In this document: in pieces, positions 1 through 54,982 of the stretch | Position numbering within the stretch: position 1 is the first letter of the stretch | How the letters are laid out: every line of letters begins with the position of its first letter | DNA from: Perkinsus olseni | Lineage: Eukaryota; Perkinsozoa; Perkinsida; Perkinsidae | Assembly: GCA_013115135.1 (NCBI GenBank) | Contig: JABANP010000270.1 | Location: 1-64,000, forward strand | DNA length: 64,000 nt | Reading direction: 5' to 3' | The notes under the pieces: generated by a model | Told to the model about the DNA's origin: nothing | What the model saw: the letters and a program-made list of their open reading frames with translations, nothing else | Database searches by the model: none | Position numbers and translations under genes: made by a program

Positions 1-413
1 CTCCGCCTAGGGTTCGAAGATAAGTTCATTACCTAACCTGACAATCGACGCTTGAATCGTATTGAATGCGACTCGCATTATGCGAGTATCACGTATGCCT
101 CAGTAGAAAATCCGCATTTCCTGCAGGATAAGACTCATCTGATAAGTCGATATGACTTTGTCAACAAATTGTTGATCACTCGGTGCTAATTTGGTAGCTA
201 CAACACATTTTTGCACAGAAATGACACTCGCTAGGGTAGAACCCCCGACTATCAGGATCTTAACAGCGAAGTTTACCGCTAGACCATCGCATTAAACCCC
301 TCGGATAGAATTGCACAATGATGCCAGGAAGAAACCGAACATTGTTTCTTTCCTTTCTTTCCGGGAAGAAAGAATTGGAAAGAAATAATAGTGCTCGGGA
401 AGGAAAAACCCTG
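1..413. other. Non-coding lead-in to satellite array
   Basis: No credible gene is seen. It holds an exact 6-1-6-1-6 triplet at 66-85 (ATGCGA, C, TCGCAT, T, ATGCGA), a 7+1+7 palindrome at 161-175, and an imperfect purine/pyrimidine inverted repeat around 345-388. Confidence 0.6.
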
Positions 414-695
414 CCAGCGAGCACGTTGGGGGAGGGGCCCTGTTGGGCGAGCGAAAAATTACCCACATCCCGGCGCCGGGATACATACGGGATCAGACAC
501 CCCCTCAGCTAACTATGATCTCGCGAATCCACCTAAGGATTTCAACCAAACTTTACAAATACTTTATTATAGCACTTAGCTCTTTTTACGCACTATGCCC
601 ATGTCAAACGAAATGTTTCGACATTCACAACGACTGCAAACCACGACCCACGTCGTGTCTCTCCATCTTGCGCGCTTGCGATCCTTTGACTAAAA

Positions 696-865
696 GCGCA
701 CGCCCGTGCGTCACATTCCACATACTTTTGCGCACGCCCGTGCGTCCCATTCCACCGACTATTGCGCACGCCCGTGCGTCACATTCCTCCTTCTTTTGCG
801 AACGCCCGTGCGTCACATTCCACCGTCATTTCCGAACGCCCCGGGCCACAGCGTCTCACTGCGCA
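696..865. repeat. Five 34-bp subrepeats in A1 (GCGCACGCCCGTGCGTC core)
   Basis: Copies start at 696, 730, 764, 798 and about 832, an exact 34-bp step; the last is degenerate. The core contains GCACG-CC-CGTGC, a short palindrome. The same block recurs at 2945, 5214 and 7499 in A2-A4, and a decayed version is visible in the B monomers. Repeat plus short variable spacer looks CRISPR-like, but the spacers are only about 10 bp and the context is eukaryotic. Confidence 0.9.
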
Positions 866-1184
866 CGCACAATCCGCGGCACATTTCCGAGCGAAACTGA
901 GACTTTTCCGACGACCTGTTCGTGCAATCCTGAGCCCGCAGTACTCCTCGCTGTGTAAACACGTTTCCATAACTCACTTCGCTACTCCTGCGATCTTAAC
1001 AGGCCTTGTATTTTCCGTCTTGAGCCAAGACCCTTGGCCCTTGTCTGGAAGAAGTTTTCATTCAGGGTCTTTTACCAGTGGCAGTTAGCTCCGGGCCGAT
1101 CTTCTTCAAGAGGCCCAGTTCTGAAGTATGAACTGCAAAATGTGCTCAACTGATATGTGTTGCTACATCGCCAACCTCCGAGGC

Positions 1185-1228
1185 GATGGTTCGTCGAGGC
1201 GAGAGCCTCGCCCGAAGGGAGAAGCATC
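1185..1228. repeat. Conserved 44-bp hairpin of the satellite
   Basis: The outer arms are GATGGTT and AACCATC (one mismatch here, perfect in A4 and in B copies). The inner arms are CGAGGC and GCCTCG around a 4-base loop. The same hairpin lies at 2312, 3434, 4581, 5703, 6850 and 7988, once in every monomer. Variant blocks shared between monomers change partner at this hairpin. Confidence 0.85.
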
Positions 1229-1526
1229 TTTCGACTGCCGTGATTCAATTTTTCCTGCGGTTTGAGAGGCCGGGCTCGCCGTTTTCACCGGGGGTGTTAG
1301 ACCGGCGGCTACCTCCAGGTATACGGGCATGCCGCTGTTATAAGTCTTTCCGTCATTGCATCATCGCGCTGAGTGGCGCAATTTCGTGCCACACATGCTC
1401 TGCGTACTTCGGCATGCCATTTTGCTCCTCCGTTCGGACTTATTTAATTTGTCCTATTTTTGTCTTTGTGAACTCAGGAAAACAGGTCAGAGGTCAACTA
1501 TGGACCCTCCCCACGACCTCTTGGTG

Positions 1527-3775: not shown

Positions 3776-4931
3776 AACACATCCACATTTGGAGTCAAAG
3801 ACCTCCGCGAGCCAATTGGGGGAGGGTCCTAATTTAGGGCGAGCGCTAGAAACAACTTCCGGGCATTCCTGGCCGGAACCTATCGTGCTTAGGCCCCCCC
3901 GTTCCTATATATTATCTTTGCTCCTACCCATTACAATTTATTCAAACCTTCCAAATCATTCAATATGGTCCGTCAAAGTTTATTCCTACTATCCCGGTGC
4001 GAATCGAAATGTTTTGACACTCACATTAACCACAAACCATGGTTCCTGTCACGTCTCCTCCGCTTGCGCACTTGCATTTCTTTGCTCAAAAAGCGCGCGC
4101 CGCTACGTCACGGCGTCGCACAAACTGCTCTGCATATAGCGCACGCCTCGTGTCACAAAGTTCTAATTTCCCGCGTGCACAAAGACCTCGCTCATTCCTG
4201 CCGCGGCGACGACCTTTTTTCGCGATACGTGCTGTTGTGCATATCTCCTCTGGGCCCCAGAGTCTGGGGTCCTAACAATCGAAGGTTCTCTTCACTATGT
4301 CGTGTTTACTTTGTTTTTGCTCCTATCCCACCTATTTTAAAACACTGACTATACGCCGATGTATTATGCAGCTGCTTCCCTGGTACGAAGCAGGCTGCTC
4401 CAAGCAGCTCTGACAATTCCTCGCTCACATGTTCTTCGAGTGGTAATTTTGAGCGCAAGTTCGCTATATATCTGCCTACTGGCCCACTACGTGGATCTCA
4501 CCTGCACGTGGTCTTAGCTTGGAGCTTTCAAACGACTTATAAGCGAGCTGCAGCATCTTCTTGCCAGCAAGAAATGACGAGATGGTTCGTCGAGGCGTCA
4601 GCCTCGCCCGAAGGGAGAACCATCGTTTCGATTGCCGCACGTCAACTAAGTTTTTTGTTTGATGATTCTGACACTCGGCCACTGGCCGCGTCGATACTCT
4701 GAAGTTATCGGCATGCAACTCGGGCGGTTATATTCGTGCTGACAGCAGTGAAAATATTATTGGCTTGTGCGACTGCGTCTTCAGTACAGTACATGTAGAG
4801 TTCCTTCCGCTCTTCAGTCTCTTCTTCCAAGTACGTTTTTATGCACAAGTCGACGAGTTTAAGGCCAGACGTCAAGCTTGGACCTTCCCGACGTCTCTAG
4901 GTGCAACCTCCACATTTGGAATCGAAGATCT
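3776..4931. repeat. Satellite monomer B2
   Basis: 1156 bp. Nearly identical to B3 up to and including the hairpin at 4581, and nearly identical to B1 after it, so it is a mosaic of the two. Confidence 0.82.
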
Positions 4932-6044: not shown

Positions 6045-7216
6045 AACACATCCACAATTGGAGTCAAAGACCTCCGCGAGCCAATTGGGGGAGGGTCCTA
6101 ATTTAGGGCGAGCGCTAGAAACAACTTCCGGGCATTCCTGGCCGGAACCTATCGTGCTTAGGCCCCCCCGTTCCTATATATTATCTTTGCTCCTACCCAT
6201 TACAATTTATTCAAACCTTCCAAATCATTCAATATGGTCCGTCAAAGTTTATTCCTACTATCCCGGTGCGAATCGAAATGTTTTGACACTCACATTAACC
6301 ACAAACCATGGTTCCTGTCACGTCTCCTCCGCTTGCGCACTTGCATTTCTTTGCTCAAAAAGCGCGCGCCGCTACGTCACGGCGTCGCACAAACTGCTCT
6401 GCATATAGCGCACGCCTCGTGTCACAAAGTTCTAATTTCCCGCGTGCACAAAGACCTCGCTCATTCCTGCCGCGGCGACGACCTTTTTTCGCGATACGTG
6501 CTGTTGTGCATATCTCCTCTGGGCCCCAGAGTCTGGGGTCCTAACAATCGAAGGTTATCTTCACTATGTCGTGTTTACTTTGTTTTTGCTCCTATCCCAC
6601 CTATTTTAAAACACTGACTATACGCCGATGTATTATGCAGCTGCTTCCCTGGTACGAAGCAGGCTGCTCCAAGCAGCTCTGACAATTCCTCGCTCACATG
6701 TTCTTCGAGTGGTAATTTTGAGCGCAAGTTCGCTATATATCTGCCTACTGGCCCACTACGTGGATCTCACCTGCACGTGGTCTTAGCTTGGAGCTTTCAA
6801 ACGACTTATAAGCGAGCTGCAGCATCTTCTTGCCAGCAAGAAATGACGAGATGGTTCGTCGAGGCGTCAGCCTCGCCCGAAGGGAGAACCATCGTTTCGA
6901 TTTTCGTACTTCAACAAAGTTTTTTTGTTACATAATTCTCGCAATCGGCCGCTGGCCGCTTCATTACTTTTAGAGTAATAGTTATAAAGTATCGGCGTGC
7001 ATTTTGAGTGGGTCTATTTGTTCTGATAACAGTGGAAGTATTATTGGTTTGCGCGACTGCGTCTTCGAGGCAGTGCAGGTAGGCCTCTCTACGCTCTTCA
7101 GTCTCTCCTTCCAACTATTTTGCGTCTTCACAATTCGGCAAGTTCAAGGGCAGGCGTCAAGCTTGGACCCTCCCGAAGCCTCTGGGTGCAACCTCCACAA
7201 TTGGAATCGAAGATCT
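6045..7216. repeat. Satellite monomer B3
   Basis: 1172 bp. Identity with B2 stops at about 6901, just past the hairpin at 6850-6893; the remainder is a diverged B version. Confidence 0.82.
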
Positions 7217-8329: not shown

Positions 8330-8699
8330 GATAGGCGACGGGTTTCACCAGAAACAAAAACAGACGCGGTAGCGGGCTCGCCGCACGGAACATTTCCGGG
8401 CGAGCGAGACTAATCCGTCGCCAGCCTGCGCATAAGGCTAAAGGTGCCCCAAAAAAGTGGTCTTTTTTTCTGTTCACCGTCAGAATTTTTTCAAACTTTG
8501 CAAAGAGGTGCCAAATGGTCCAACTAAGACAGCACGCGAATGTTGGTCAAAATCTGTCGAGTAGTTCTCGAGAAATAACTTAAAACATTTCATGTGTGTG
8601 CGTACAACTTAGAGACATCTGCGCAAGATTAGCTCTGTCTCTGCGCACATTGAAACTGTCTCCGCGCAAGATTACGATGTCTCCTCGCGCAATCACTAG

Positions 8700-8762
8700 T
8701 CGAGTAGGCCGAGCGATCGACTGGAAATCTCCTTCACCCAGGTTCGATCCTGGCACACCACA
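8700..8762 (+). pseudogene. tRNA-Ser(GGA)-like remnant
   Basis: GGCCGAGCG resembles a D-arm/A-box, GACTGGAAATC an anticodon loop reading GGA, and CCAGGTTCGATCCTGG a T-arm. The T-loop is one base short (TTCGAT) and no 5' acceptor strand pairs with the CACACCA 3' side. It is better read as a tRNA pseudogene or tRNA-derived repeat than a working tRNA. Confidence 0.45.
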
Positions 8763-9960: not shown

Positions 9961-10006
9961 TAGCGCGAATCGTGCTAATTTCGTTTTTACAGTTTTTTCA
10001 TCACAA

Positions 10007-13201: not shown

Positions 13202-14750
13202 ACTATCTGGCGAGGTTTTGAGTTAGAGTTACAGCGTGGGCAGGGTTTTTTGTCGTCAATGGGAAAGAAGATTATCCGCAGGAACAGACTCCGCCCGAAG
13301 GAAGCCTGCAGTGGTTTGTCGGTACAATGTAACTATCAGCTGATTTCAAACCACCTGATGCTCACGACTGTTCATGGAGCCCGAGAACGGCTCAGCTGTC
13401 ACGGCTGACAGTAGCCCAGCCTCATTGCCAGTCTTTACATGTACTTGGTGAAGTTTTGTCCAAGCTTGCTTGAAGACGCTGTTCTGTTTTCTTCTCGACC
13501 TATAACTGTCCGGGTGTTTTTCTACTCATTCACAAATTGATGATACCTACTAGGCATACTCACCATACCATGAATTGCGGAAACGACGCCTCGCTATAAA
13601 AGACAACTCGTAAAGCTACTATCCCTGTGTAACATGAATCCGTTCAAGTCTCATCTGCGCATGACTCTGTGTCACACTCATGCTTAGTAATCATAACTAG
13701 TCTGTCAATAACTGTTTCTTACCAATAGCCGTTATTAATAACTGCGTGATGTACACAGTGAGAACCTAGTTGTATCAATACATCAGTTCGGGTCCATGAG
13801 ATTATGCCTTCCAACTTGAACAGCAGAAATTGAGTCATCCACTAGCGTCGAGCTGAGCTAAGGTTCCTGGTAGCAACTCTACGCGGAAGGATCGGCGCGA
13901 GCAAAATTAACACGCAGCGTCTATGAGCGCAAGAAGGGCCTGTGCGTACCGAAGAGAATGCAATAAAGTTATTATAGTTCTGTGAAGTAAGATGCGAGAA
14001 TAAGCCAGGAGCTAGCGACAGGAACAGCCGTGAGGTTATGGCTGTAATGATGGCGGATGCGACCTCGACCCAGCCCTCCGCTTCCTGGATGTGGAAGTAG
14101 GATACTACAGACTGCTGACTCGACCCGGGGTGAGCCCTGGCGGCTTCCAAGTTGGAAGCTCCAACTGCTAGTTGGCGGCAGACACAGGCTGATTCCTGAT
14201 TGCTGGCTCCGACACTGATGGAGGTCAAAGCGCAGGTCAAAGCTGAGCCACTCCCTGGTCACACTTTCAACCCATGCATGATGGCAACTTCGACTGTTGC
14301 GTATTCGCCCAACTACCGTCCGGGTGAGGCGAGCGACATATCACCCACCGTCGGGCGATGATTCAATTTCCCGGATTACCCTTCCGAAAGGTGCTATCAA
14401 AAATAGGGAATTACTCGTAATGAAGTGCCTTTGCCATGACGCCATTGGCAATGCCAATTTGGCATCATGTCCTGCAAGGATCATCCTCGAAGGATGTATT
14501 CTCCACCAACATAGTAGTCAGGGTATCATGCCCCTGGAACCTGGAACTGGAGCATCGCTCTCGTGTGGCTGCGCAGCTGCCTGACTATAGTCTTCACCAC
14601 GGGAGTTATTATTGCCCGGCGGGCAGTGCTCGTCCAATATATATATCCATTATAATGGTGGATGAGGCGTTCGGTCACCGGGGGTCATAGGGGTCGGACC
14701 GAACCTCGGTGGCTCAGCCACCGTGGCTGTGCAGCGTGCACTTTAGAGTG
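13202..14750. other. Intergenic, old LTR fragments and triplet cluster
   Basis: No gene is supported. 13687-13850 is related to the LTR-like block at 42170-42390 (AACTAGTC, TTAATAA, CACAGTG landmarks; both end in a shared TCATCCACTAGCGTCGAG). 14036-14300 is related to 40437-40700 (GTAATGATGGCG ... GGATACTA). Triplets lie at 14145-14164 (one mismatch), 14445-14464, 14613-14632 (one mismatch) and 14709-14728. Confidence 0.55.
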
Positions 14751-15519: not shown

Positions 15520-15901
15520 AGTGCATGCATGTATATTGGAGCTTCTAATTCATCAGCGCGTCACTCTGCTTTTAGGAACTCCTCTACAATGCTAAACCAC
15601 CAAGAAATCAGGTGAGGCCTGTCTTGGCCTCTTTGTCGGTCAATGAGGCATAATCATATCCTTAGGAACGTGGAGCCGCCTATCAACGATGAAGAACCTC
15701 CGCCCAAGTAGTTATGTTAATGACACTCATCAGTTTGTGAGCCCTCTTCTCTTACGAGGGCGTACTTCGTACTTCGAGACCTCAAAAGGGTTAAGATATG
15801 CTTGCTGTCTTTTTCACAGTATGACGTTCCTTGAAGTGTCTCTTCGGAAGTGACCATAACTTTTTCAGAAGAGATGACGATTATATGCACCTCATCTGCG
15901 C

Positions 15902-15921
15902 TTTCGTCACGAAAGTTTCGT
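15902..15921. repeat. 6-1-6-1-6 triplet absent from the paralog
   Basis: TTTCGT-C-ACGAAA-G-TTTCGT. Copy B at 44429-44434 has a single TTTCGT with matching flanks (CTGCGC before, GTTTTTTCTCAG after), so copy A is longer by exactly 14 bp. Confidence 0.92.
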
Positions 15922-16341
15922 GTTTTTTCTCAGCTATTGGTCTGCAATCGCGATGGAAACCAGGCAGAGCTCATCCAGCATTGAGGACACTGGCGTGGTA
16001 AACGTTGAATATACAATCGGTGCACTCTTCCTGTCAAATGAGATTCAAAATTTCCATTGCAACAAGGAGAGCAGAAAAAATCTTTCGTAGTGCGTATGCA
16101 TCCAGATGATGTACCATCAGTGGCCGTGATATAGCCCTATAGCAGCGTGACTATAATATAGTATGAAAAAGTAGCCGTGAGGGGCCGGGAGGAAGTGGTT
16201 CCGAAATCCGAACCCTGTGAGCTCAACTCATTAATATGGTATATATCATACCTTCGATTGTCGGGAGGATCAGTCGTGAGCTTCTTCCAAACTCAACTTT
16301 CATGATTCACGCTATACAACTCGTATGATACGAGCCTGTAT

Positions 16342-19340: not shown

Positions 19341-19585
19341 GTGAGATCGTCTTACTGAGATGTAAGTTACATCACGTAACCCTGCCGCGCCGAAAAATCC
19401 GTCGCTCCCATCATCGATAGACTTTCAACACAACCATTCAAGCGAGATCGGGCGCGTAATGTCATGCAGCTACTAGCCGTGATAATATGCAATACAATGC
19501 ACGACTATGAGAGAAGGCTTATATCAATGATACCAACATAGATACGATGCGAACGAAGACGTCCTCCAGCCATACAAGCTCGGCG

Positions 19586-22442
19586 TTACAGTATCTTCTG
19601 TGTCGTCTTGCATACCAGAAGCTGCTCCAGCGTACTTGTCTTCAGGTTCGCCCTTCTCAACCCTATGATGGACTTAGCTTGCGAAAAGACCGACTCACAC
19701 CTGGCCGTTGATAGGGTAAAATATTTGGTTATTCGAGAAGCGAAATAGAGATTAGGGAATTTGTCACGAGCGCCCTCCCAGAATACATCATAATCTACTT
19801 GATGCTGGCCAAGCTTCATGTACTCCTCGCACTCCGCGGTAACCGCTGCAGTCAGGGCGTCAGCATCCATTTGTGGCTGCTGTGGTTCTTCCCAAACAGG
19901 CAAGGCAGTGATATCGATGACATCGTCCCAGATATTCTCCTGAAACTGCGGGTGACTCGACTCTGATGTACTGGAGATGTTGGCCTCTGTGCCTTGCGAG
20001 GACTCGCCATCCCTCGGCGCCCCAACATCTGCGGTAACCTGCTTACGGTACCCCGATAAGAACCCCCAGTTGAAAAGGACCCATTCGATGTTCTCTCTGC
20101 TGAGTCGATCAGGATCTTGGACATTGCCAGGCGCGCTTTCTCTGAATTCCTTAACAATTAGAAGATTCTCGACGCCCTTGACTCTCATGCGCGGGTCAAG
20201 AAGACAGCCGATGAGGCTGTCTGTGGAGAGCCGCCAAATCACCTATCACAAATTAGAAGGATAATACTGTATCACGCAAATTTTCCCACTTTCTGGCGGA
20301 AGGCATCGCGCATCAGTAGCCTCGCCTGTATGATCTCTGGCATGTCTTCCTCGCCTTCTGTATTGAGGAGTCTCCAGCACTTCTCAAGCTGCCTGTAACA
20401 GAAATCCAATAACTGTGACCTACCAACTATAATTTACGCTATGGTATCCATGAATACGAATGGTCGCACCGCTTGCATTCTGTCCGTCGCGATAGCGAAT
20501 GGATGCAACAACTCGTCGATAGCCTCCAGCAGACACTTACGGCTGAGCAGACCCTCGAAGGACCTAGACGAGGAGCTGCCGCGATGATGAAACTGGCTGA
20601 AAGAGACCCACCTTAGCCTGTCGTGCTGTGAAAATACTTTGATGATGCCTTGCCATGACCGCAGCACGGAGCGCAACATCTTGAGGGTCGAGTTCCACCG
20701 GGTTTCATTACGGAGACTGAGCCTGAATTCTCAATAGTGCTGTCAGCCTCGGTGCTCGCAGGAAGTTTTTGCTGAGCAAAGCTCGGACTAAGTCATACAG
20801 TGTGAGTCATACTGGCTCATCCCTGCGGCTCTCAGAATTTTTTCCCGGACCTACCGTGTGCATTTCTCGATATTCGCGATCTCGTTGTTCATCTTGGTGC
20901 GACGCGCTACAGCGACAAGTCTCGTCACGGTCGTCAGGATCCCCGCGATTGATGAGGTTCTCTCGGCTGGTAGCGGCCTCATCATATCGTTCAGACGGAG
21001 TGAAGGGTCCGACAGACTAAGCTCGCCGGTTTCTGCGTTCCCCTCGGCTATGGCACCCTTCTTGGTCGGTGCTACGGCTGGAGCAGTTCGCACGCAAGAC
21101 CGCTTACTCCTGGCTTGTCTCTGAGCTTCATTATTGCCTCCGGTGGCCGCAGCTCCAGTCGAGGGGTACGTTGCAGCTTTTACCGCTAACTGTAGAAGGT
21201 GCGCAAAGCATGGCACACTTGCAGCACCAAAAGAAGCTAGAGCTTTGATATTGGCTTGGCACGAATCGCTCAGGAATAGAACTTCATCTCTGCCTATTCC
21301 ATAGTCGTCGAGAACCTGTTCAAGATCATCTTGACAAGATGCGAACTCGGAAGTCTCGCCGACCATAGAGAGATGTGGCCTTTACCAGCAGAGCCCTTAT
21401 TACCGACTGCAGTGTTTCTGCTATATCCTCTCCTTGCCCAGACTCGAGTTTTCTCAGTGCTAGGAGTACGGGCTCAGCATTGTCATGGTATTGATTCTCC
21501 AGGGCAACGGTCACAGCGAGGACCTCCTCGCCTTTGTGATACGTCTTCCAGGCATCAAATTGCATCTGAAGAACGAGACGTGCCACCGCAATATCACCGT
21601 TATACTCAATGCGAAAAAGCGCTTCTCCAGTTGAGCGAAGAATGTTGAAGCCGAAGGATCCGAATTACCTGGAGAGGGCGATTCTGAGACCTCAACCGTT
21701 CTTTGACATTCTCATGAACAGCATCGTAGCGCTTATTCACCTTATCAGCAACATTCTTCGCACTTGGCAAGGAGCGGGTGGCGTCGAAAGGCCGACCGTT
21801 TCTCGCACCCAAGTCACTGGCGAGCTGGACTAGTCTTTGGAACGGCTCGGACTCAGTCACAGTGAACGGGAGGCACTGGGAAACGACCAGATCCACGCAT
21901 GCCTCATAAAGCTTAGCACGCTGCTCAGCAGCTAGGGGAGCGGGGTCCTTGATGAACTGCAGAACTGACGGGACTCCCTCACTAGAATGGCACGCTTGTT
22001 GATGGCGGGTTAGCGTGCTAGTATTGCCCTGCTTCGTTTTAAACACCGTTCTGCACTTGCTACAGACAGCGTACTCTTTGCAAACTGTATTTGTAGCCCT
22101 TACTCGCACTTTGAGAAACCCATCAGCCGACCAGATTGCCGACCTTGAGCGGCTAGGAATGAACGTGTCGAAGAGAGACTCATTGAGCTTCTTTCCAATC
22201 AGCGGTTCCGATACTCCTGTGCCCTTTGCTTTCTCTTCGCCATCTTCACTGATGATGCTCTCCTCTTGCGCTTCAACGTCTCCATCATCCAGACTGAAGT
22301 CATCTAGTACCCTGCCCACATCAATCGTCTCGCTGCCCCTCTCCTTCACGACGCTCGAGAAAGCGACTCTGCTGCGTTTAGTCGGAGGAGATGAGCGAGA
22401 GAAACTCTGAACGGGTAGCTTTGGCGTGGCCTTGTTCTACTA
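19586..22442 (-). pseudogene. hAT transposase, broken
   Basis: The frame order on the minus strand is: about 22440-21606, 21586-21326, 21366-20851, 20679-20434, 20242-19586. Near the N-terminus a BED-type zinc finger is visible (CSKCRTVFKTKQG, then LTRHQQACH; about 22068-21985). Mid-protein text FRIEYNGDIAVARLVLQMQ and ALASFGAASVPCFAHLLQLA (the hAT CxxH-like region) fits the family. The C-terminus has the dimerisation signature STARCESVFSQAKSIIGLRR (about 19730-19640). Adjacent frames overlap or need one- or two-base shifts, so either short introns or frameshifts separate them; the missing 5' end argues it is dead. It would cut and paste hAT DNA in the nucleus. Confidence 0.8.
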
Positions 22443-32465: not shown

Positions 32466-35400
32466 CTCTTCTTACGTGAAGTTCCCTCTAAGAATCAGAT
32501 ATTTACACTTTTCTGTCCCACCACACAATGACAACGCATGATATTCCTGCGAAAGGACTCCTCTGAGGAGTTCAGAGCTCACTTATCCGATAAGTCTTAT
32601 CGCGATCGATGGAAAGGGCACGGTCCGTGCCGCATGGAGATCCCCGACGGGGATTCCCCGTCTTCCGGAGCGCAAGTTGCGGTCATGGCCCAGGAGAGCA
32701 GCTCAGCTGGCCTCGCAGTGGTAGTGAGGGTGGCGGGGCGTATGTGATGGGCCATCACTGATGGCTTTTCCCTTAAGCATAATACAGGCCTTCGTTGTTC
32801 AGTTGACGCTTCGTTTGTCTGAGCCACCCTCTTACTTGGATTTCCTGCGGACCACTGCTTCCTGTCACAGCGTGATTTCCATTGAGTCAGATGGATGACA
32901 ATCAAGACGCCGCACACGAAGAATGACAGCAACACTCTGCATGCTGGGGAGGACTGGCGAACGAAGGAGCGGGGGACGGCTGAGGACTTGCTCCTTATCC
33001 AGAACTGAGAGGGGTGATAGCGTGTGCAGTGCACTGGGTATTATGAACGTGTGCATTGAAAGCTCTGATTGATGATCAATCATTGATCACGGCTCCGAGA
33101 ATTTCGCGCTCTCATGCCCTGGTGACTTCGCTGCGCTTTTCTACATGATGGCCTGCCATACTCTGGGTCCTCTCACTTGAGGGGCGAATGACGGGTGTCT
33201 CTTGTCTCAGAGTTAGTCCAAGTCCGAGTTCCTCGGCATCTACAGCTAGCTCGACTACCGGCTCTGATATCAATGCTGGTGGTAGTGGTCGCGGCGTAGG
33301 CGACTACCGCCCTGTGTAGACGGGCCACACCGCGAGGAGACCGACTCTCGCCAGCAAGGCAGTCCAGTGGACGGGAGAACAGCAGCCGCAGTCGTGGACG
33401 GAGATGGCGGTCGCGGCAGGCGTCATGTAGCGCGGGGAAGTTTAGAGGGACTTCATCGACTAAGTCGATAGGACGTGATGATGAAAGTCGATTCGACTTT
33501 CATCATCACGTCCTCATCGTTCGTTCCGCTCTCGTGCTTGCATTTCTTCGTGACGTCACTGCCGTCACTAGGATACGTTAGAGTCTAACGGTTAGACTAT
33601 CACTGACTGACTAAAAAGTTCTACTTAAATGATCATTGAGCATCGCTCAAAGGTTCACAGTATCCAACTTGACTAGAACTAGTAGTTACTGTAACTGGAG
33701 CGCGCGACAGGGAACAACCCTCGAGAACAAATTTGTGAATGCAGGAGATTGAGTAAACACTTGGAATTCTATGATCGTTACTACTTTTCAGTCGGTCAGT
33801 AAGTACTTTCATACATAAAGGGGCGCGCGCCTATACGCGCGAATAAGGGGAAATTTGTGACATTGACATTAACAACCTGTTATTAACAGCCTTCCGATCG
33901 CGCCTACATATACCACCACGATCCTCCTTCTTTAAAGAAGGAAGATCGTTAGACTAACTGTTGAATTAACCAACTTCAACCATTCAGAGGTTTCCTTCAA
34001 CTCTGCCTCTATCCACTCTGCGGCAGAGTGACGGTAGAGTGACGTGCAGCTTCTGACACCTTTCAATCAAAATTCTCCCATCAGATGGGGCCCATCTAGA
34101 TTCGCAGAATCAGCTTCATTATTCTCCCATCTCAGCACGTGATAAACCAATGTATTACAACACTTCTGTAATCTCTCCGTAGCATTCTTAGCACTTAACC
34201 ACGACACAAAATTATAGAGCGAGACACTCAGTGCACAACTCTTAGATACTCTTCTCTCCGTAGGAGAGTGCTACAAGTATATGAGACCTCCAATCCTTTT
34301 TCAAATCATTGAAGACACTCGTCGCTCGCCCTATCGTCTTACCGTCGGTAAGACGGAATCGTAAGACGGTAAGTTACCGACTTCTCTAGTAGCCTTCATC
34401 TTTGAAGTAAGTGCGCAGTGTATCAAGACATACGGTAGGCTAACCTCTCTATAAACCGGATAGATACTCTCTCGATCGTCGAGACTCGTTCTTCTTTTCA
34501 TCTATCTCCCCTCGATACATTTCAACCTTTCTGCTCTTCCTCGGTGCCCTCTTCGAAAGAGGCTCTTGCGCTCAATAATCATCTCACTATGACGATTTAT
34601 CCCCTCGCTTGTATCCACAAGGCTTTCTCAGAATGGAAATCACCCCAGCAAATTCCGCAAGTCCATCGGATAGAGCCATCCATCTATCGCTCAGCGATAA
34701 TCGCTGGAACTCATCTATCAAAACCTGATCGCAGCATCCTCAATTTATCACCATATTCATCCAAAATCAGAGTGATTGAACGGGCACATGGAAATTTCCG
34801 GGCACGGAAATTTTCCGAAAAATTTCCATCTGTTTTTTGGGGTCGAAAAATAGTGGAAAAATGCTCTTTTTAGGTATATTTCGGTTATATTGGCGAACTG
34901 GACGGATTTCGGCTTCTACCAACGTTAAGTGATTCGGTTCGTTCACGATTAAGAAAGATCAATTCAATATTCGACTGTTCGAAGAACCGGGAGAGTCGGT
35001 TTGCAACGCGAACCATGGTTGCGCTGTTGCAACTCCTTGCCAAAACTTGAAAACTTGCAATGCTTTCATTGCTAGTAGCACGCATGAACATATGAAGAAT
35101 AGTAGGAAGAAGACTCATCGTTAGCTCAATATGATTCAGAGATTTTTGAAACTCTTACTGTGAGGATCTACTGGGTCTTACGACTATGTACGATGGCTTG
35201 CGTCTATAAGGGTCACATCAAACACTCATTGCTCAACAGCGCGGCGAGTCATGTGCGCGCCCGCATAATCGATTGCTCTTCTGCGCAATGCGCAACATTG
35301 CCCGTCTATTCACAGCTTTGTTTTCATGGCTCCCCTAGACGCTAGAAGCTACTTCCGCAGAGTGCAGGTACCCAGCGATGACCCTGCGACGTGACTTCAT

Positions 35401-37880: not shown

Positions 37881-37887
37881 GGGATTC

Positions 37888-39073
37888 GCCATAAGAGCGT
37901 CCGGCCTCGGTCCGAGCTGCAGGTTTTTTTTATTTTTTCCGAAGTATCCAATAGTGAGCCTCGAACGGAGGAAAATACACAAATGTTATGCCTATCCGGC
38001 ACTACAATAGACCCCTGCGGTTACCGTGACACGGTATAAAATGAGCAGACCAAGAAATTTCGAGGCCGCGCAAAGTGATCAACTCTAAATTTTCGAGATC
38101 GATATTGAGTGGCGAAGTCCGGTTCGGTCAATTAGACCTCAAGAACGCGCATGATTTCCTACCCCAACCGTGCGTAGTGTAAAGTGGCAAGATCACTGGA
38201 TCGTGAGTCACGATTCGTGACGCGCTGGTCCGTTGTGCTAGTTCTTCCTAGCTATACTTGAGATTTAGTTTTATAATTGGATTCGTAGTATCCTGGTTTC
38301 GTCGTGCCTATCAGTCATGGTAATGAGTAATTATGTTGGCGAGCGTGCTGACTCGGTTCTCCACCCGATCGTTCATCCGGTCGTTCTTAATAGAAACTTT
38401 TTATTGGCCGCATATCACACCGTCCAATTTGGGCGTGCCATCCTCAACTGTCTCCGAAGGGGAGTCCGACGGCCACGGATTAGATTGGCAGGCGAGTCTA
38501 GTTGACAAGTTCCGGGCGGGAAGCTGCGATCGAGCCGCTTTTTGCAGTGACTGTTAGCCTGAACGGCGTTGTGAAGTGGGCATAGCAAGGGCGTTGAGCA
38601 ACGGGGACGCTATAGCGCGCCGATGGCCGTAAAGCTATGTCGCAACGCGATAGCGTCAGGGCCCTGCGTACGGACGTACCCTGCATCACCGGGTGGGCAC
38701 GATACCCTCGATTTCTCTCAGCGGATGCTATCCCACATCAGTCCAGGTGTTCCAGGCTGCCGGCTGGAACTTCCAGCTGCCGCTACTCACAGCCGGTACT
38801 TCCGATTATACGAAAGTTCCGGTCATGGTCCGAAACAACGGCGGTTGACGCGCACGGTGACCCGGCTAGCTTGAGAAAAGTCGCACGGCTCTGAGCTATT
38901 ATTTCGATCGATTGTACGCATCACGGCTATTTGTTGCACGTTGCCGTCACCCCCCTTCGTCCTCAGTGTCCTCTCCGTTAGATGGATGAGATGATGCTTC
39001 ATTCGAAGATTGAGGCCTCGCAGTAGTTGGTCCACCCGTCACTCAATCAGCTCCTTAGAAACTCTTTTTCTCG
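37888..39073. other. Intergenic, no gene seen
   Basis: Short frames only. A 7+1+7 palindrome GCTGGAA-C-TTCCAGC is at 38763-38777. Pyrimidine-rich text precedes the ATG at 39074. Confidence 0.5.
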
Positions 39074-39931: not shown

Positions 39932-41554
39932 TTCGCATCGACCCGACGGCCCCGCAGTCAGCATTGCAGAATATCCGATCTTATGGATCTTTCTTATCAC
40001 TCCTTTTCTTCTTTGAAGCACCTCACTCGCACGAAGTCCTGTGTGAGATTTTTCCGTTGGAGAGAAGCTACTGCTCGCTTTTGTGCGTCCGTGAGAATCT
40101 TCATGTACTCTTCTTAGATAGTCTTATTGTGATACGATGCTCATGATCATCACGAGGCTTCATGTCCAGCTGATCTCTGAGAGGTTTCACCTATTTCCAG
40201 ATTGTTTTCATGCCGAGGGCCTTCACTGATTCTTCCTTCTCACTGTCACGTATTGCTAGTTGACGGGTAACTTGTGATACTTCACAGAGGTGGTCAGTTT
40301 TCGGTGGTGTTTTGTCGCTACGGCTGCCAAGCTTCTTGGAAATCCGTGATGATAAATACTTCTCGAGGAGGCGAACGTAGTGTCGGGTTATCAAGGCTGT
40401 GGCTGTAAATTACAGCGACTACAGTAAACTACAGTTACAGCCTGTAATGATGGCGTATTCGAGATCGGGTTAGCCCTCCGCTCCCTGGATGTGGATGTAG
40501 GATACTAGAGACCGCTGACTCAACCAAGAGTGGGTTTGGAGTCAGGCAGCTCCTATTGAAGAGTGGCGGGCGCTAACTTCTTGTTAACAGCAAACACTGG
40601 AAACTACCCAGTTGACACTGATGAATAGCAAACAGGTCAGAGCGGAGCCACACAGTGTTCACACTTCCAACCCCTGCATCACGGGAATTTTGGCGACTGT
40701 GCGTCTCATTCCTTCCAGCCCACCCTCCCACGCCGGGGTGGAGGTGATGCGCGAGTCAGCGTTTAGCTGCGCGACTCGCCATCATCTCGCAGTACTGGCT
40801 TATAGACCTCTCAACAGCTCGCGGCCCCATCGCGGAAGCGGAGGTCGGTCTGTGGCTTTCGTCTGATGACATTTGATGCGATTATCTGCTGTTGTGACTA
40901 TGTGCGCCTGTAAGTGAGTAGCCATTTGTCTTTGCAGTAATTCTCCAATACTTTCCGATCTGTTCTGCTCCTCGCTCCTTCTGCGAGTGATCATCTCCTC
41001 CGTAGTATCAACTACTACTATCATCAGAGTATAGCTTTGGTTATTCTATCGCTTGTCCAGTTGCTCATCCCCAACTCAACTATAATATCAGTAGAAGGTC
41101 TGCATCAGATGATCTAATCCAGATCCGGGAGTGTGACGTTACTGGGTCATCATGGCTGCCAAGTTGGCAGTGCCAACAACAGTACAGACTCCTGTGATGT
41201 GCCAGCGCAATGAGTGTATTCACTTCCTCTCTCTCTAGCTCACAAAATTGTCTTTTCTCTTCACTTTTCTCTCACCCTAGTGACTAGGGCCTAGTCTATC
41301 CCTCATTGGTTATTGAGGGGTTTGGAATACCGCCGCGCCGCGGCGGCCGCGGTATCACCGCGTCGGGCTGAGTCCAACTAAACCGGCGATCGACTGCGTT
41401 TGGCTGACAGTGTCAGCCTGACACGATGCGTCTCGCAGACGCATGAGCGCTGTCAAGACCATGCATGCTAGGAACGCCAATAAGATCACGCCTTTCCTGA
41501 TAAACAAGCCGCCGAGGATGATGGTCGGAATGAGCTCATCTACGCGTGGTATGT
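39932..41554. other. Intergenic with repeat and triplet cluster
   Basis: No gene supported. 40437-40700 is a diverged copy of 14036-14300. Exact triplets at 41157-41176, 41276-41295, 41332-41351 and 41404-41423; 7+1+7 GCTGTAA-A-TTACAGC at 40402-40416. A short AG-rich stretch near 40980. Confidence 0.55.
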
Positions 41555-41849: not shown

Positions 41850-42118
41850 TAAGTCGTACCGCCGGTACCCGGTACGGTCGCGGGCACGACCCACAATTAG
41901 CAGGTTCGAACAGGTATGCTCCCAGGAAGAAATGGCGGTGATGCACCGGTGCTGTCGCCGCTGCAACATGTACTCGACCAAATTCTTGAGTAGGGGGCCG
42001 ATCTCGAAGCAGCGAATCAAATCACAGCCGGGGACATCGACACTGTACGTGAGCCTGACTCAGGCTGCCTGAGTGGCGGTATCAGATCGATATGCTGTAT
42101 CATCAGCACCTATACTAA

Positions 42119-42390
42119 GAGTTGGGAGCCGAGAGTACCAGCTGAGTCATCAACCGACTCAGAGTTCCGTCCATGCTCAGTAACCATAACTAGTCAGTAC
42201 AATGACTGCTTCTTATTAGTAACCGTTGCTAATAATAAAGTGATGTAGACTGTGTAAATCCCCTTGTCTCAGTATATCAGCCGATACCACAGTTGCTCAC
42301 GTAGTGACTTGTAGGGATTATGTCTTCTAAGTCAGACAACAACAATGGAATCATCGGATGATTATCATCCACTAGCGTCGAGTTGAGCTA
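42119..42390 (-). repeat. LTR-like fragment, relative of the BEL/Pao LTR
   Basis: Plus-strand GTTGGGAGCCGAGAGTACCA parallels the BEL/Pao LTR text TGTTGGGAGCCGGAAGCAC, followed by CTCAGAGTTCCG and GTAACCATAACTAGTC matching the LTR's order. No internal domain adjoins it. Probably a solo LTR remnant of a related family; 13687-13850 is another piece. Confidence 0.6.
42350..42369. repeat. 6-1-6-1-6 triplet inserted relative to 13835
   Basis: ATCATC-G-GATGAT-T-ATCATC. The related sequence near 13835 runs GAGTCATCCACTAGCGTCGAG with a single TCATC, so the insert here is 14 bp. Confidence 0.88.
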
Positions 42391-43269
42391 AGGTTCCATA
42401 GTTGTACATTTGTACAACTACCGCCCCGGGCGGTCCGCCCGGCTAAGGCGAGCGACGTATCACCTACCGTCGGGGCCCGACGGTCGGGCGGTAGTTCAAT
42501 TTCCCGTTTCACCCTACTCAATCATGCCGTCAACAATGAGGAATTACTCGTGGAATAGTGACATTCTCATCTGCATTAGTTTACAAGGATGTACTCTCCC
42601 TGGTTGGCCAACATAGTAACTGGAGCATCCGATGCTCAGCATCGCTCTAGTGTGGCAGCAACTGCCTGGCTCTAGTCCTCACCACGGCTGAAATTCCCAA
42701 TGACGAGGATGGGATGGATAGATGCAGCTGACTGGCCAAGGTAGCCGGGGCAAAGCGAATTGCGTTGCCCACAGCAGAACTGGTGTGGTCGGACCACAGT
42801 GGTCCATATGTCACAGACTGTGACTCACCACACTCCAGTCAGCGGTTATCTACTAGGACTAAGAATGTCTATCAACACTCTCTCTGCAGACTTACCTCGG
42901 AATATCGTTGAAGACAAACTCTAGTCCTACCTCGACATCGAGGGATTGGGCTGGGAGGGGCGCGAAAATCAGCCAAAGTCAGGCGAGCACCAAACAACCA
43001 ATATCATACGTTGATAACTGGTAGCGCTTGAATATCTGCACTAGCTTCGTTTGTGCGGAAGATGCTCCAACGGCTCATTGCACAACCGATCGTCGTCTTC
43101 GTTGTGCGGGCCCCGCACAACGAAGACGACGATCGGTTTTCCACCCCCGGGGTGGAAAATTCCTCTACTCCCCCGAATTTCACTCTCGTCGATCAGCCTT
43201 AGTCGATCACTGCCAAGTTATTATTGCCCGCCGAGTATATATCCACCATGACGGTGAATGAGGCGCTTG
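42391..43269. other. Intergenic, densest triplet region
   Basis: No gene supported. Exact triplets at 42421-42440, 42469-42488, 42624-42643 and 42785-42804; a partial one at 42811-42830. Two long palindromes follow at 43082-43157. A GGCGAGCGACGTATCAC block at 42447 matches 14323. Confidence 0.6.
43082..43136. repeat. Perfect 27+1+27 palindrome
   Basis: Begins AACCGATCGTCGTCTTCG, central C at 43109, then the exact reverse complement. Overlaps a second palindrome at 43135-43157 (TTTTCCACCCC-C-mirror). Confidence 0.93.
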
Positions 43270-51560: not shown

Positions 51561-52019
51561 TTCTCGGGACTTCCGATATTATAATCTACTCATTGGTCTA
51601 AATTCTTTTACAGTGAATTAATCCTCACCCTGAATTTTTATGCGACTTTTTTTCGGCGGAATTTTTTGCATACCAAAAATACATCACTATGGAAGCCTAT
51701 AAATTTTTCTACTGATGATATTGATTTCATCTTCGTATGATATTTCTGGTAGCAAAGTTGATGGTAAGAGAGACGGCGCCATCTCCACTGGATGGGAGTC
51801 TGGGCGGGGACGTATCGGGTACTCGCAGGTTTACTCAAATTTGAAGTCTACTCGCAGCTATTCCACCCGAGTGACCCTTTCTTTTCTTTTTTTAAGGTCG
51901 ATGAGCGTTTCCCTTGTAATCCGTGTAATCTACCGTATCAGAGGTGTTTAATTTCGTTTCCACCCCAAAAAAAGCTCCATCAGATCGGACAGCATTTACA
52001 GAGCTAGACGGCGGCGTGG

Positions 52020-52150
52020 TCGGCAAGCTTGTCTGTACTACTTGCCATTGATTGGCTATTTGTCTCTTAGACTGGCTAAGGTTGTTGATGAAGGTTTCCG
52101 TTGTGTTTCGTGTAATCTACCATTGACGTGAATAATTCGGTTTTCACTCA
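52020..52150. repeat. Dispersed repeat, second copy
   Basis: Partner of 9807-9960; shares CTGTACTACTT and ATTGATTGGC and the TTTTCACTCAAA tail. Confidence 0.6.
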
Positions 52151-52650
52151 AACAAGTTTCTACTATTTCCGCTACTGTTATACGGTAGGCTGCTACTACG
52201 GCGGAACTACTACTATGGCTGCTGCTGTTATACGGTTCTCCTTCCTCTTTGCAGGTTGCCTAAGACGACGGCGTGTCTCACTGGAAGTGTCGGGAATAAG
52301 GCGGTCAGTAGAGAGGTCCGTAAACATTTGGAGATTGTAGGAGCTCAGGATGTAGTTAACGGGGCGAAGCGGTGGAAATGTGGTACTATATCTCACAGAG
52401 TTGGATTTCAATTTGATTGCTTGAAAAGTTTAAGTGGTTAGAGTTGATAATGATTTTAGAGGCTATGACTGATTTCAAGTGTCACGTAATAAGCGGTAAA
52501 TCGAAGGCACGCTGTAGAGCCTAACGTTCTTGAAAACTTATCGGCAAATGACCTTGAGCGTAGTTCTCCTGGATGAGAAAACATGAATCACTTTCTTTGA
52601 GAATCAGTGGCGGTCGCCTGAGTCGTATCGTGGTCGGTCTTCCCGCACAG

Positions 52651-52791
52651 GTTCGAATCCCGGGTATGCACGAATTCCGTGATTTACCCGAAGACAAGCG
52701 CCAGCAAATGCTCACCGTGCTGAGCGCAGTGGTGTCGACTCTGGCCGAGGAGCATGTTAAGGCGGCCATGCATCCTCAGAAGAAAAACTGA
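52651..52791 (+). CDS. Terminal exon, unidentified protein
   Basis: Begins right after an acceptor CCGCACAG and reads VRIPGMHEFRDLPEDKRQQM, LTVLSAVVSTLAEEHVKAAM, ending HPQKKN and UGA. Helical, soluble. The exon starts GTTCGAATCC, which mimics a tRNA B box; I take this as coincidence because the codons make sense and no tRNA cloverleaf forms. Confidence 0.5.
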   Translation, partial: VRIPGMHEFRDLPEDKRQQMLTVLSAVVSTLAEEHVKAAMHPQKKN

Positions 52792-54982
52792 GAAAAAGTC
52801 GCGCGCCACGAAATTCTGTAGTATCTTTTCGTCACTGTCATCATACAGTAATTCATGACTGCATATGGTAATTTCACCCTTTTCATGATTGCGTTTTAGT
52901 TTTTAATTTTTTTGGTAAATTTTTGGGGTAATTTTTAGGGGTAGCGGTCGCTACGGTCATCCAGGGGACTGTCTTCCCTCAGTTCAAGACCGCTCCCAGG
53001 AACGTTAAACTTGATCCTTGAAACGCTCCTGGAATTCTATTGAACGCCCTTCTTGATTTTGAAGTGAAGAGCACCGTGTTGATGGCCGGGGGGGGGAGTA
53101 TGAATGCTTGCCATACCCACTTTCCCCCAAATCTGCTCCAATGGCCAGCCGTCGTCGACGAGCTTCGAATCTGAGTGAGCCCCTGCCGCAAGATCAGGTG
53201 AAACGGTTTATGTATAGTTCTCTCGCCGCACCGACCTGATGCTTCAATCTCAAATTTTGGGTTTTTTTCCGATTTTTTTCAGGGCAAATCTCATCAGTTC
53301 TCGGAGGTTTTGGAGCCACCCAAGGAAATCCGAAAGGAGGAAGCTGAAAGGCCGGTTGAATCTTCTGTAGTGGGGTAAAAATTACGGAAATTTCCGAAAT
53401 TTTTCGTATTTTTGGGGCAGCTCTAGGCGTTCCATGATTGAAGAGAGTAACGTAACGGAGTTGATTATTTCTGAACGGATGATGACTGTTGGGACTTTCT
53501 TGTTTGAACGCTGCTTTTCCTAGGCGATATTTGCATGCCATCTCGATACCCTGTTTCCGGGCGGAATCGTGGTTACTAGTACTAGTCAGTATTACGAGTG
53601 TTACTTACTTACTGTGTACGTAGTTACTAGACTAGTAATACTAGTTACTTAGTGTACTTGTTATATCACTCAGGTTACTAATGTTAGTTTGTGTACTAGT
53701 CAGTATTGGCATTAATATTGCCTCAAGTTTGCCTTAGCGCAAAATGCTCCCAGCGCTCATCACCGAAACTCGCATGAAATTAGGCTCAACCAGCAGCATT
53801 ATGATTGGATATTCTATATGGCCCGATTTGGTATCAGTGGAACATATCCAGGATATCTTTTTTTCTTTGCTGTGCGGTAGTCGACCACTGTCGTTGATAG
53901 ACTGTTATGATTCATCACAATTGGTCCTTAGCGCGGCTCAGCGCCGCCGCCGCCGGGGCCCTCGGAGAAAGCCAACCCATCGGTCGTAGCCGCGATATAC
54001 AAACCCTTGGATGTGGTAAGGGAGGATATCCAAGTGGAGGCGCTGGAGGTAGTAATGAGCTGGATGTGAAAAGCGCGCGCCATCGTGATCGATTTGCTTC
54101 GAAATTCAACGGGTGACGCATCATCATGAGTGTGACGGCGACGAAATGCGTGGGAGTATTAAAGGCACAGGAATGATGCTTGTCGTGGGAATCGAACTCG
54201 GGTGGAAGGTGCACCCGACGTCTCCGTCGAAGAAGGCAGTGGCAGGGATGAGCGGAAAGAATATCTATGTACAGCAGAAAGCGACTAGAGCTGATGGTAA
54301 TGAGGGAAATGACCGCTGCGCCACGAAATTATTATATCACGGAATAATGCTGTTCATCAATTTGGCGACTGAAACCGGAGGTGGTGAAAGTGCGGACGCG
54401 CGAGGAATGCCTCGCTGCCTCTCATGGGGTGGCTTTACATTGGGCAACTTTGATGAGCGTCCACATGTGAAACGGTTGATCGATTTGGGTATCAGGTATA
54501 GCATCATCATCGTCGTTGAGGGCAGTACCAATGAAGCATTTCCAGAGCTTGCATATGAACCAGTCTGGTGGACCGAATAATCGATCAGGTGATCGATTTG
54601 ACGTTGGATTCGAATCTTGCTTACCTGACTCCGTTACTCTCGAAGTTCGAATGTTTGACTCGTGAGAAATTACGAAATTCACGAAATTTCTACCATAAGT
54701 TTCCTTTTCAAAGTTTCGTTCGCTCGAGTCATCGTAGGCGAATTGGAAGGAGCTTGCAAATTGAAAGCGAGTTCAGTCGCTTAAAGCGACAAAACCAGGA
54801 CCAGGAAAACTACCAACGGTGCTCACGCATTCCGTTGTTAGAGTTTGGGAGTGAGTTTTTGCGTGTATATACTCTGACAGGGTGAAAGGGTGAACGTGAC
54901 CGTTTCTTGAAAGAACGGGCGAGCGAAATGGTAGGAGTGGTGTTGAGGTACTGATACGAGGGATCTTCTGGTTCGATGTGAA
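52792..54982. other. No gene assigned; repeats and scattered frames
   Basis: A triplet lies at 53625-53644 (TACTAG-A-CTAGTA-A-TACTAG) in a CTAGT/TACTT-rich stretch (53570-53710). A 25-bp block at 54307-54331 recurs inverted at 55747-55771. The palindrome AATCGATCAGGTGATCGATT is at 54579-54598. A frame at 54113-54580 is long (155 codons) but its N-terminal part lacks an ATG and has no motif. Confidence 0.4.

What the first reader, a model, noticed from the sequence alone, without database searches (positions are those of the whole stretch)
66..53644. A recurrent 20-bp pattern: X-n-X'-m-X with 6-bp X (21 exact cases)
Three 6-mers in a row, the middle one the reverse complement of the outer two, separated by exactly one base each time. 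Exact cases start at 66, 14445, 14709, 15902, 19321, 32582, 32641, 32745, 33068, 33577, 34686, 41157, 41276, 41332, 41404, 42350, 42421, 42469, 42624, 42785 and 53625. One-mismatch cases start at 14145, 14613, 16314, 17549, 32618 and 33870. Each X is different (for example TTGGCA-A-TGCCAA-T-TTGGCA; TCCCCG-A-CGGGGA-T-TCCCCG), so this is not a dispersed element sequence. A random 20-mer fits with probability 4^-12, about 0.004 expected in 64 kb. The fixed 6 and the fixed single spacers suggest one enzymatic process, for instance a 6-nt staggered break repaired with two template switches. Mechanism is inference; I recall no description of it.
Basis: seen in the sequence. Interest (0 to 1): 0.96.

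Follow-up and report, generated by a model that had tools for sequence, protein, structure and literature searches.

The report
Uniform scars of departed hAT transposons
This genome, predicted to be that of the shellfish parasite Perkinsus olseni, is peppered with tiny palindromic insertions that are likely the scars of jumping genes that moved away, nearly all of one identical form, so past jumps could probably be counted from a single sequence.

Summary
The window holds 27 exact X(6)-N-X'-N-X(6) sites (0 in 100 shuffles); no other 6-bp geometry gives more than 1. Twenty other 10-kb stretches of the same 61.5-Mb genome hold 58 more.

The two "free" spacers are complements of the flanking bases in 78 of 84 sites, so the unit is 22 bp: for an 8-bp target T, T without its last base + reverse complement of T + T without its first base. 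Related copies show a 14-bp gain at one T.

This is what hAT excision predicts when flank hairpins with a one-base offset open long and re-anneal through the target duplication. Support: a weak T2/A7 target bias; resident hAT elements with 8-bp duplications and empty sites; and six long footprints holding both opened hairpins of the same T, four with filler copied from the flanks.

Known in kind (hAT P-nucleotide footprints); unusual in uniformity and number (about 16,000 exact copies estimated). Not shown: element and scar at the same site, the enzymes, or which hAT family made which scar. The 6-nt break with template switching is replaced.

The parts
65..86 (.). exact 22-bp scar, T=AATGCGAG
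4248..4269 (.). exact scar, T=CTCTGGGG (in 2.27-kb tandem repeat)
4387..4408 (.). one-mismatch scar, T=GAAGCAGC
6517..6538 (.). exact scar, repeat copy of 4248
6656..6677 (.). one-mismatch scar, repeat copy of 4387
14144..14165 (.). one-mismatch scar, T=CTTCCAAC
14444..14465 (.). exact scar, T=ATTGGCAT; near a 22-bp (not 14-bp) gap against L005
14475..14496 (.). one-mismatch scar, T=CAAGGATG; near a 16-bp (not 14-bp) gap against L005
14708..14729 (.). exact scar, T=GGTGGCTG
15901..15922 (.). exact scar, T=CTTTCGTG; clean empty sites at window 44344-44514, L005 and L006
17309..17330 (.). one-mismatch scar, T=CTCGTCGG; 14-bp gain against L006
17347..17368 (.). one-mismatch scar, T=AGGATTAG; 14-bp gain against L006
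17548..17569 (.). one-mismatch scar, T=GACTTAAA
19320..19341 (.). exact scar, T=GTGGTCAG
19359..19380 (.). one-mismatch scar, T=GATGTAAC
21320..21341 (.). exact scar, T=TCAAGATG
32581..32602 (.). exact scar, T=ACTTATCG
32617..32638 (.). one-mismatch scar, T=GGCACGGA
32640..32661 (.). exact scar, T=ATCCCCGT
32744..32765 (.). exact scar, T=GTGATGGC
33067..33088 (.). exact scar, T=GATTGATC
33455..33499 (.). long two-hairpin footprint, T=ATCGACTT; 15-nt filler is the reverse complement of the right flank
33576..33597 (.). exact scar, T=CGTTAGAC
34076..34097 (.). scar with one mismatch in the 22-mer, T=TCCCATCT
34685..34706 (.). exact scar, T=TATCGCTG
38200..38221 (.). exact scar, T=ATCGTGAC
41156..41177 (.). 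exact scar, T=CTGCCAAC
41275..41296 (.). exact scar, T=CCCTAGTC
41331..41352 (.). exact scar, T=CGCCGCGG
41403..41424 (.). exact scar, T=GCTGACAC
42052..42073 (.). exact scar, T=AGCCTGAG
42349..42370 (.). exact scar, T=AATCATCC; 14-bp gap in L005 and L006
42420..42441 (.). exact scar, T=ACCGCCCG; 14-bp gap in L005 and L006
42468..42489 (.). exact scar, T=CGTCGGGC; 14-bp gap in window 14316-14418, L005 and L006
42623..42644 (.). exact scar, T=GAGCATCG; its relatives align without a clean 14-bp gap
42784..42805 (.). exact scar, T=TGTGGTCC; clean empty site in L024
43086..43159 (.). two abutting odd palindromes (arms 25 and 11, one-base centres) around a 40-bp gain against L024; hairpin-type footprint without a recoverable 8-bp T
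53624..53645 (.). exact scar, T=TTACTAGT
60867..60888 (.). one-mismatch scar, T=AGCTCAAC
63010..63076 (.). long two-hairpin footprint, T=CCCTCGCC; only 5 nt of the filler matches a flank
19586..20242 (-). reading frame with hAT C-terminal dimerisation domain (PF05699), a resident hAT fragment

Best explanation
Each 20-bp pattern is the core of a 22-bp scar that was likely left when a hAT-type DNA transposon moved out of an 8-bp target. An inserted element would be flanked by two copies of the target T = aXb. The transposase is predicted to nick one base outside each element end and cap both flanks as hairpins with a one-base offset, as I recall for hAT transposases. The hairpins would then be opened 8 or more nucleotides from their tips, which exposes single strands that both carry the inverted target. 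These two strands would anneal over the 8 bases, be trimmed, filled and ligated, giving aX - b'X'a' - Xb: exactly the observed form, a net gain of 14 bp, with arms equal to the target duplication minus one base. Shown here: the 22-bp rule, the 14-bp gain at empty sites, the target-base bias, resident elements with 8-bp duplications and hAT features, and rare long footprints with flank-templated filler. Inferred: the order of cuts, the annealing step, the enzymes, and the element family behind each scar. The high number would follow from elements of roughly constant copy number hopping over a long time, one scar per hop.
For: Spacers equal the complement of the neighbouring bases in 78 of 84 sites; the 6 exceptions fail on one side only. 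Exact 14-bp gaps at one copy of T in relatives of 15902, 42350, 42421, 42469, 42785 and L028:8401. Among 56 distinct gaps of 5-61 bp between related copies, 14 bp is the commonest length (16 gaps; the next, 6 bp, has 7), and 14 of those 16 rows (13 sites) are scars with at most 1 mismatch. Full form 78 against 0 in shuffles; P-nucleotide forms with middles of 4-7 bases 5 in all, near shuffle level. T at position 2 / A at 7 of the target: 37% of 228, z 4.1. Six long footprints with both hairpins of the same 8-bp T beside 109 simple scars (98 distinct 22-mers), 0 in five shuffles; in four the filler is the reverse complement of one or both flanks (two extra bases in one), so hairpins opened up to 33 nt from the tip. 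hAT dimerisation domain: 21 matches, all over cut-off. Complete element L030:982-2845 with that domain and 8-bp duplication GTCTGATG. A family with ends CAGGGTGGCTGAAA: 108 ends against 11 for the reversed pattern, perfect 8-bp duplications in 9 of 12 copies read. Of nine insertions tested (eight of... seven of the ten copies read, C29 and L030), seven have junction-spanning matches without an insertion, 83-100% identical. Scars of 0, 1, 2, 3 mismatches: 78, 41, 53, 93 against 0, 0, 3, 40 expected. Ac/Ds footprints centre on the complement of the base next to the element (PMC5873905 passages).
Against: No site was found where one copy still has the element and another has the scar (0 of 9 insertions; that search scored 40 of 57 candidates). 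Scars far outnumber visible elements: in 234 kb, 72 exact scars against two elements with 8-bp duplications and matching ends. The CAGGG family is called hAT from its ends (recalled motif) and duplication; no transposase was tied to it. The target bias is weak (37% against 25%). Repair is not wholly uniform: other gap lengths exist between relatives, including five of 7 bp; 3-base middles (21 against 9.6) and bare 6-bp tandem copies (211 against 117) are about twofold over shuffles. Relatives of 42624, 4249/6518 and L008:1731 show no clean 14-bp gap; near 14444 and 14475 the gaps are 22 and 16 bp. Two of six long footprints have mostly unexplained filler. Footprints in Candida, yeast, plants and human cells are described as heterogeneous. 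A likely Ku exon is present, so lack of classical end joining does not explain the uniformity.
Confidence: 0.88

Rival explanations
1. Some other element with an 8-bp duplication (for example the 5.6-kb inverted-repeat element at 32329-37887, superfamily not identified) makes the scars by a hAT-like flank-hairpin excision, and the hAT elements are bystanders.
For: That element has a perfect 8-bp duplication; 8 contigs hold both of its ends, and two other copies, C224 and C159, show perfect 8-bp duplications. No scar was tied to a named family.
Against: Flank hairpins and complement-centred footprints are documented for hAT, while the Mutator-like Muta1, with 8-9 bp duplications, mostly excised precisely in yeast (PMC5225508 passages). 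The CAGGG ends are more numerous (108 against 17 matches).
Confidence: 0.08
2. Programmed elimination: a domesticated hAT transposase cuts out elements on a schedule, as in ciliates, so nearly every insertion ends as a scar in the sequenced genome.
For: Scars outnumber visible elements (72 to 2 in 234 kb; compare) and are uniform.
Against: The scar adds 14 bp, unlike precise elimination; intact elements with empty sites elsewhere are present; scars of all mismatch classes accumulate, and copies differ in having them, as expected of ordinary mutations. Constant-copy hopping would explain the ratio.
Confidence: 0.05
3. One reading: a 6-nt staggered break repaired by two template switches, without any transposon.
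For: Explains an inverted middle copy between two direct copies.
Against: The inverted copy is 8 bp and includes both neighbouring bases; single-base offsets on both sides, long two-hairpin forms and flank-templated filler point to hairpin ends, which this model lacks.
Confidence: 0.02
4. Sequencing or assembly artefact.
For: Short palindromes can arise as chimeras.
Against: Scars are shared between repeat copies (L011, L028 and window pairs), occur with mismatches as if decaying and keep one geometry.
Confidence: 0.01

Closest known systems
Ac/Ds (hAT) excision footprints in Candida albicans, with yeast and plants compared (PMC5873905, passages read; the yeast and plant papers it cites not read)
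   Same: Palindromic P-nucleotides centred on the complement of the base next to the element; attributed to hairpin-capped flanks
   Different: There 28 footprint types among 128 clones, P-nucleotides at most 3 nt in Candida; here almost one type, with the full 8-bp target inverted and hairpins opened up to 33 nt from the tip
TcBuster (hAT) footprints in human cells (PMC3499496, passages read)
   Same: Small insertions complementary to the flank, attributed to hairpins
   Different: A few bases and deletions up to 50 bp; no uniform full-length form in the passages read
Kat1 of Kluyveromyces lactis and Hermes (PMC4763223, passages read)
   Same: hAT-type enzymes that cap the flanking DNA with hairpins
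   Different: Kat1 is a domesticated enzyme whose breaks lead to gene conversion, not to scars
DNA transposon excisions in rice (PMC4423477, passages read)
   Same: Genome comparison that reads past excisions
   Different: 86 of 94 excisions had deletions and/or filler; few hAT events; no single dominant scar in the passages read

Membership tests
hAT transposon excision footprint | 8-bp target duplication at the site | tested here: met
   Unit is built from an 8-bp T in 78 of 84 sites; one T in empty relatives
hAT transposon excision footprint | Centre base complementary to the base next to the element end (one-base-offset hairpin) | tested here: met
   81 of 84 on each side
hAT transposon excision footprint | Target preference nTnnnnAn (recalled consensus) | tested here: met
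   T2/A7 37%, z 4.1, but a weak bias
hAT transposon excision footprint | P-nucleotides templated by flanks beyond the target when hairpins open far out | tested here: met
   Filler templated in 4 of 6 long footprints, one of them with two extra bases; 2 of 6 mostly unexplained
hAT transposon excision footprint | Resident hAT elements with 8-bp duplications in the same genome | tested here: met
   L030, domain and duplication; CAGGG family, no transposase tied to it
hAT transposon excision footprint | Same site seen with element and with scar | tested here: inconclusive
   0 of 9 insertions had a scar-bearing relative; 7 had empty ones
hAT transposon excision footprint | Transposase of this organism makes flank hairpins | not testable with these tools
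   Needs biochemistry
Mutator-like element footprint | 8-9 bp duplication, excision mostly precise (as for Muta1 in yeast) | tested here: not met
   The scar is an inverted-target form, not a precise excision (PMC5225508 passages)
Programmed DNA elimination | Scheduled germline-to-soma loss | not testable with these tools
   Only one assembly; the 14-bp gain argues against precise removal

The most novel reading that the evidence does not exclude
Perkinsus resolves transposase-made hairpins by one near-deterministic route: both caps are opened far from the tip and re-zipped through the inverted target duplication, so every hAT departure stamps the genome with a self-identifying 22-bp tag whose 8-bp core records the target. 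Tens of thousands of such tags, of all ages, form a readable odometer of transposition in a single genome.
Probability: 0.55. Interest if true: 0.76.

Novelty: new variant of a known kind. Interest (0 to 1): 0.64.

Why it matters
hAT footprints are usually described as varied, which hides past excisions. Here the repair outcome is so regular that a past excision can be recognised from sequence alone, with no relative and no element left behind. That would allow counting and dating of transposon hops, mapping of target preference without an assay, and a test of which nuclease and joining route turn hairpin ends into one product. It also warns that a genome with few visible DNA transposons may have hosted very many jumps, and it offers 14-bp presence/absence markers for populations of a mollusc parasite.

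Tried and rejected

Resident elements by 8-bp duplication plus inverted ends: two scans showed no excess, but both required the bases beside the two duplication copies to differ, which dropped real insertions. Repeated without that filter on 234 kb (satellite stretches L017, L020, L028 left out), the scan finds two elements with CAGGG ends, L010:7838-8784 and L023:6984-7559, besides one tandem array in L024 and one weak pair in L009.

Lack of end joining as the reason for uniformity: not supported, a likely Ku exon is present (my reading). One match to the SNM1/Artemis-type domain PF07522 was found; its role is untested.

The hAT fragment in the window as a source element: the 3.48-kb insert in the left retroelement LTR that carries it lacks an 8-bp duplication and has no second copy, so it was set aside.

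Same-site element and scar: 0 of 9.

Guess that partial footprints would be common: not borne out, apart from the twofold excesses told under evidence against.

Structure prediction was not used; Rfam was searched once (one tRNA).
Full report
OBSERVATION. All 21 exact and 6 one-mismatch cases listed are present; the window has 27 exact and 12 one-mismatch cases. Over arms 4-10 and spacers 0-4, the 6/1/1 geometry stands alone among 6-bp arms (27; others 0 or 1), and 100 first-order Markov shuffles give none. Twenty 10-kb stretches of the same genome (18 chosen by contig number, at contig starts; 2 chosen because they had matched the window) hold 58, with 0-3 at other 6-bp geometries; the one large count elsewhere in that grid that is not the same sites read short, 286 for arm 4 at 3/4, is a satellite array (283 in L017). 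The source is a 61.48-Mb, 968-contig assembly, eukaryotic by its content. A hAT transposase from it is 95% identical over 74% of its length to a Perkinsus olseni protein and 69% over 73% to a P. chesapeaki one, so the organism is probably P. olseni or very close; no record names it.

THE TRUE UNIT. The base before the first X is complementary to the second spacer, and the base after the last X to the first spacer, in 78 of 84 non-redundant sites (81 of 84 each; chance 1 in 16 for both). With T = aXb the unit is aX-b'X'a'-Xb, 22 bp: the 8-bp target inverted between two target copies that have each lost the base nearest the middle. Symmetrised over exact and one-mismatch sites (114), T at position 2 (A at 7) is 37% (z 4.1) and T at position 1 is 13% (z -4.1); outside the 8 bp the largest deviation is z -3.1 at the adjoining base. 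nTnnnnAn is the hAT target consensus as I recall it.

IT IS A GAIN OF 14 BP AT ONE TARGET. Relatives within the genome lack exactly 14 bp at 15902 (three relatives), 42350, 42421, 42469, 42785 and L028:8401. For 42624 and L008:1731 the relatives align without a clean 14-bp gap, and for 4249/6518 the diverged repeat copy has a 4-bp gap. In a survey of gaps among related copies (at least 80% identical; satellite arrays L017, L020, L028 and loci overlapping the window left out), 56 distinct gaps of 5-61 bp include 16 of 14 bp, the commonest length; the next, 6 bp, has 7. Of the 16 rows, 14 (13 sites) are scars with at most one mismatch; near the scars 14444 and 14475 the gaps are 22 and 16 bp instead. 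Copies of one region that are 94-97% identical (L026, L063, L064) differ by whole scars.

MECHANISM. hAT-type transposases cap each flank as a hairpin; the passages read say so for Hermes and Kat1 (PMC4763223), and Ac/Ds footprints centre on the complement of the base adjoining the element (PMC5873905, passages). With a one-base offset the left flank becomes L-aX-b'X'a'-L' and the right flank R'-b'X'a'-Xb-R once opened. Both open strands then carry the inverted target and can pair over 8 bases; trimming and filling give exactly aX-b'X'a'-Xb. The annealing step is inferred. It predicts rare products in which opened ends are joined without that pairing. These exist: six cases with aX-b'X'a' and b'X'a'-Xb of the same T separated by filler, beside 109 simple scars (98 distinct 22-mers, because some loci are related copies), and none in five shuffles of the 264-kb set. 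In four of the six the filler is the reverse complement of one or both flanks, continuing outward from T: 15 nt at window 33455, 8 nt at L020:4324, 4 nt plus 25 nt (sharing one base) at L023:4245, and 16 nt plus two extra bases at L006:3369. In window 63010 and L010:6082 only 5 and 3 nt match. So, on this reading, hairpins were opened 8 to 33 nt from the tip. A 40-bp gain near 43109 contains two abutting odd palindromes with arms of 25 and 11 but no recoverable 8-bp target.

HOW UNIFORM. With the target copies intact, the full form occurs 78 times (0 in shuffles). P-nucleotide forms with middles of 4-7 bases occur 5 times in all, near shuffle level; 3-base middles 21 against 9.6 and bare tandem 6-mers 211 against 117 are over it, and may hold other footprints or simple repeats. 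This scan cannot see footprints that deleted part of the target.

THE ELEMENTS. The hAT dimerisation domain gives 21 matches over cut-off, one in the window. L030:982-2845 carries that domain, begins TAGAGACGGGCAAA, ends in an imperfect inverted copy and has an 8-bp duplication GTCTGATG; TAGAGATGGGCAAA has 39 matches with at most one mismatch, against 9 for the reversed pattern. A family of about 0.6-0.95 kb with ends CAGGGTGGCTGAAA has 108 matches against 11; it is called hAT from its ends (recalled motif) and duplication. Of 12 copies read, 9 have perfect 8-bp duplications and 3 do not (C102, C92, C24). Of nine insertions tested (eight of this family and L030's), seven have junction-spanning empty-site matches elsewhere, 83-100% identical, none a scar; the search scored 40 of 57 candidates. 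In 234 kb two such elements lie among 72 exact scars. At C24 the right junction carries the inverted target, the target and a few bases of inverted flank, as a one-ended cut would leave; this reading is tentative.

NUMBERS AND AGE. Exact 22-bp scars per 10-kb stretch are 0-10, mean 2.6; scaled up this is about 16,000 genome-wide (bootstrap 8,300-24,600), with the caveat that the stretches are not a random sample. Scars with 0, 1, 2, 3 and 4 mismatches number 78, 41, 53, 93 and 402 against 0, 0, 3, 40 and 289 in shuffles. The roughly flat excess suggests continuous production over a long time, in which a small, constant population of cut-and-paste elements could suffice; that is inference. Scars cluster: 42% of spacings in the window are under 200 bp against 11% expected (exact and one-mismatch sites), cause unknown. 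They lie inside reading frames of 150 codons or more in 10 of 72 cases, while such frames cover 35% of that DNA.

WHAT IS KNOWN. Nine searches of the paper library, seen as listings, and passages of five papers returned hAT footprints that are short and varied, and rice excisions with deletions or filler in 86 of 94, but no near-uniform full-target scar and nothing on such scars in Perkinsus. The library lacks most subscription papers, including a yeast study of hairpin repair, so a description elsewhere cannot be excluded.

VERDICT. Real, not chance, very unlikely an artefact. Best filed as a new variant of a known kind: hAT excision footprints with an exceptionally regular outcome. Shown: geometry, 14-bp gain, target bias, flank-templated long forms, resident elements with 8-bp duplications. 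Inferred: hairpin resolution by 8-base annealing, the maker family, and the steady-state history.

Noticed in passing
window 32329-37887: 5,559-bp element with long inverted repeats and a perfect 8-bp duplication GCCATAAG; 8 contigs hold both ends. Of the other copies, C224 and C159 show perfect 8-bp duplications, C424 six of eight bases, C945 and C237 none, C769 and C657 end at the contig edge. One frame (36734-37387) looks to me like a Ulp1/C48-type cysteine protease, but Pfam gives no match; superfamily unknown.
   Followed up: partly
window 18876-31752: BEL/Pao-type LTR element with a 2,677-aa open frame; its left LTR is split by a 3.48-kb insert carrying a hAT fragment without an 8-bp duplication, no second copy found.
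   Followed up: partly
window 326-8063: Four tandem copies of a ~2.27-kb unit, each with a 34-bp sub-repeat array.
   Followed up: no
G000:C24:125366-126061: A copy of the CAGGG family whose right junction holds inverted target, target and inverted flank bases, as expected of a one-ended cut that was rejoined to the element.
   Followed up: partly
L064 near position 1573: A 7-bp gain at a self-complementary CTGCAG target, giving two target copies with one base between: possibly the short product when X pairs with itself.
   Followed up: no
C159/C424, C945/C237, C559/C612: Pairs of contigs with the same element beside the same flank, so alternative haplotypes or recent duplicates seem to be assembled separately; useful for element-versus-scar comparison.
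   Followed up: partly
window 32581-34706 and 41156-42805: Dense clusters of scars, five within about 460 bp at 42349-42805; insertion hotspot or local hopping, not resolved.
   Followed up: no
window 57504-57576: tRNA-Ile with anticodon UAU on the minus strand.
   Followed up: no
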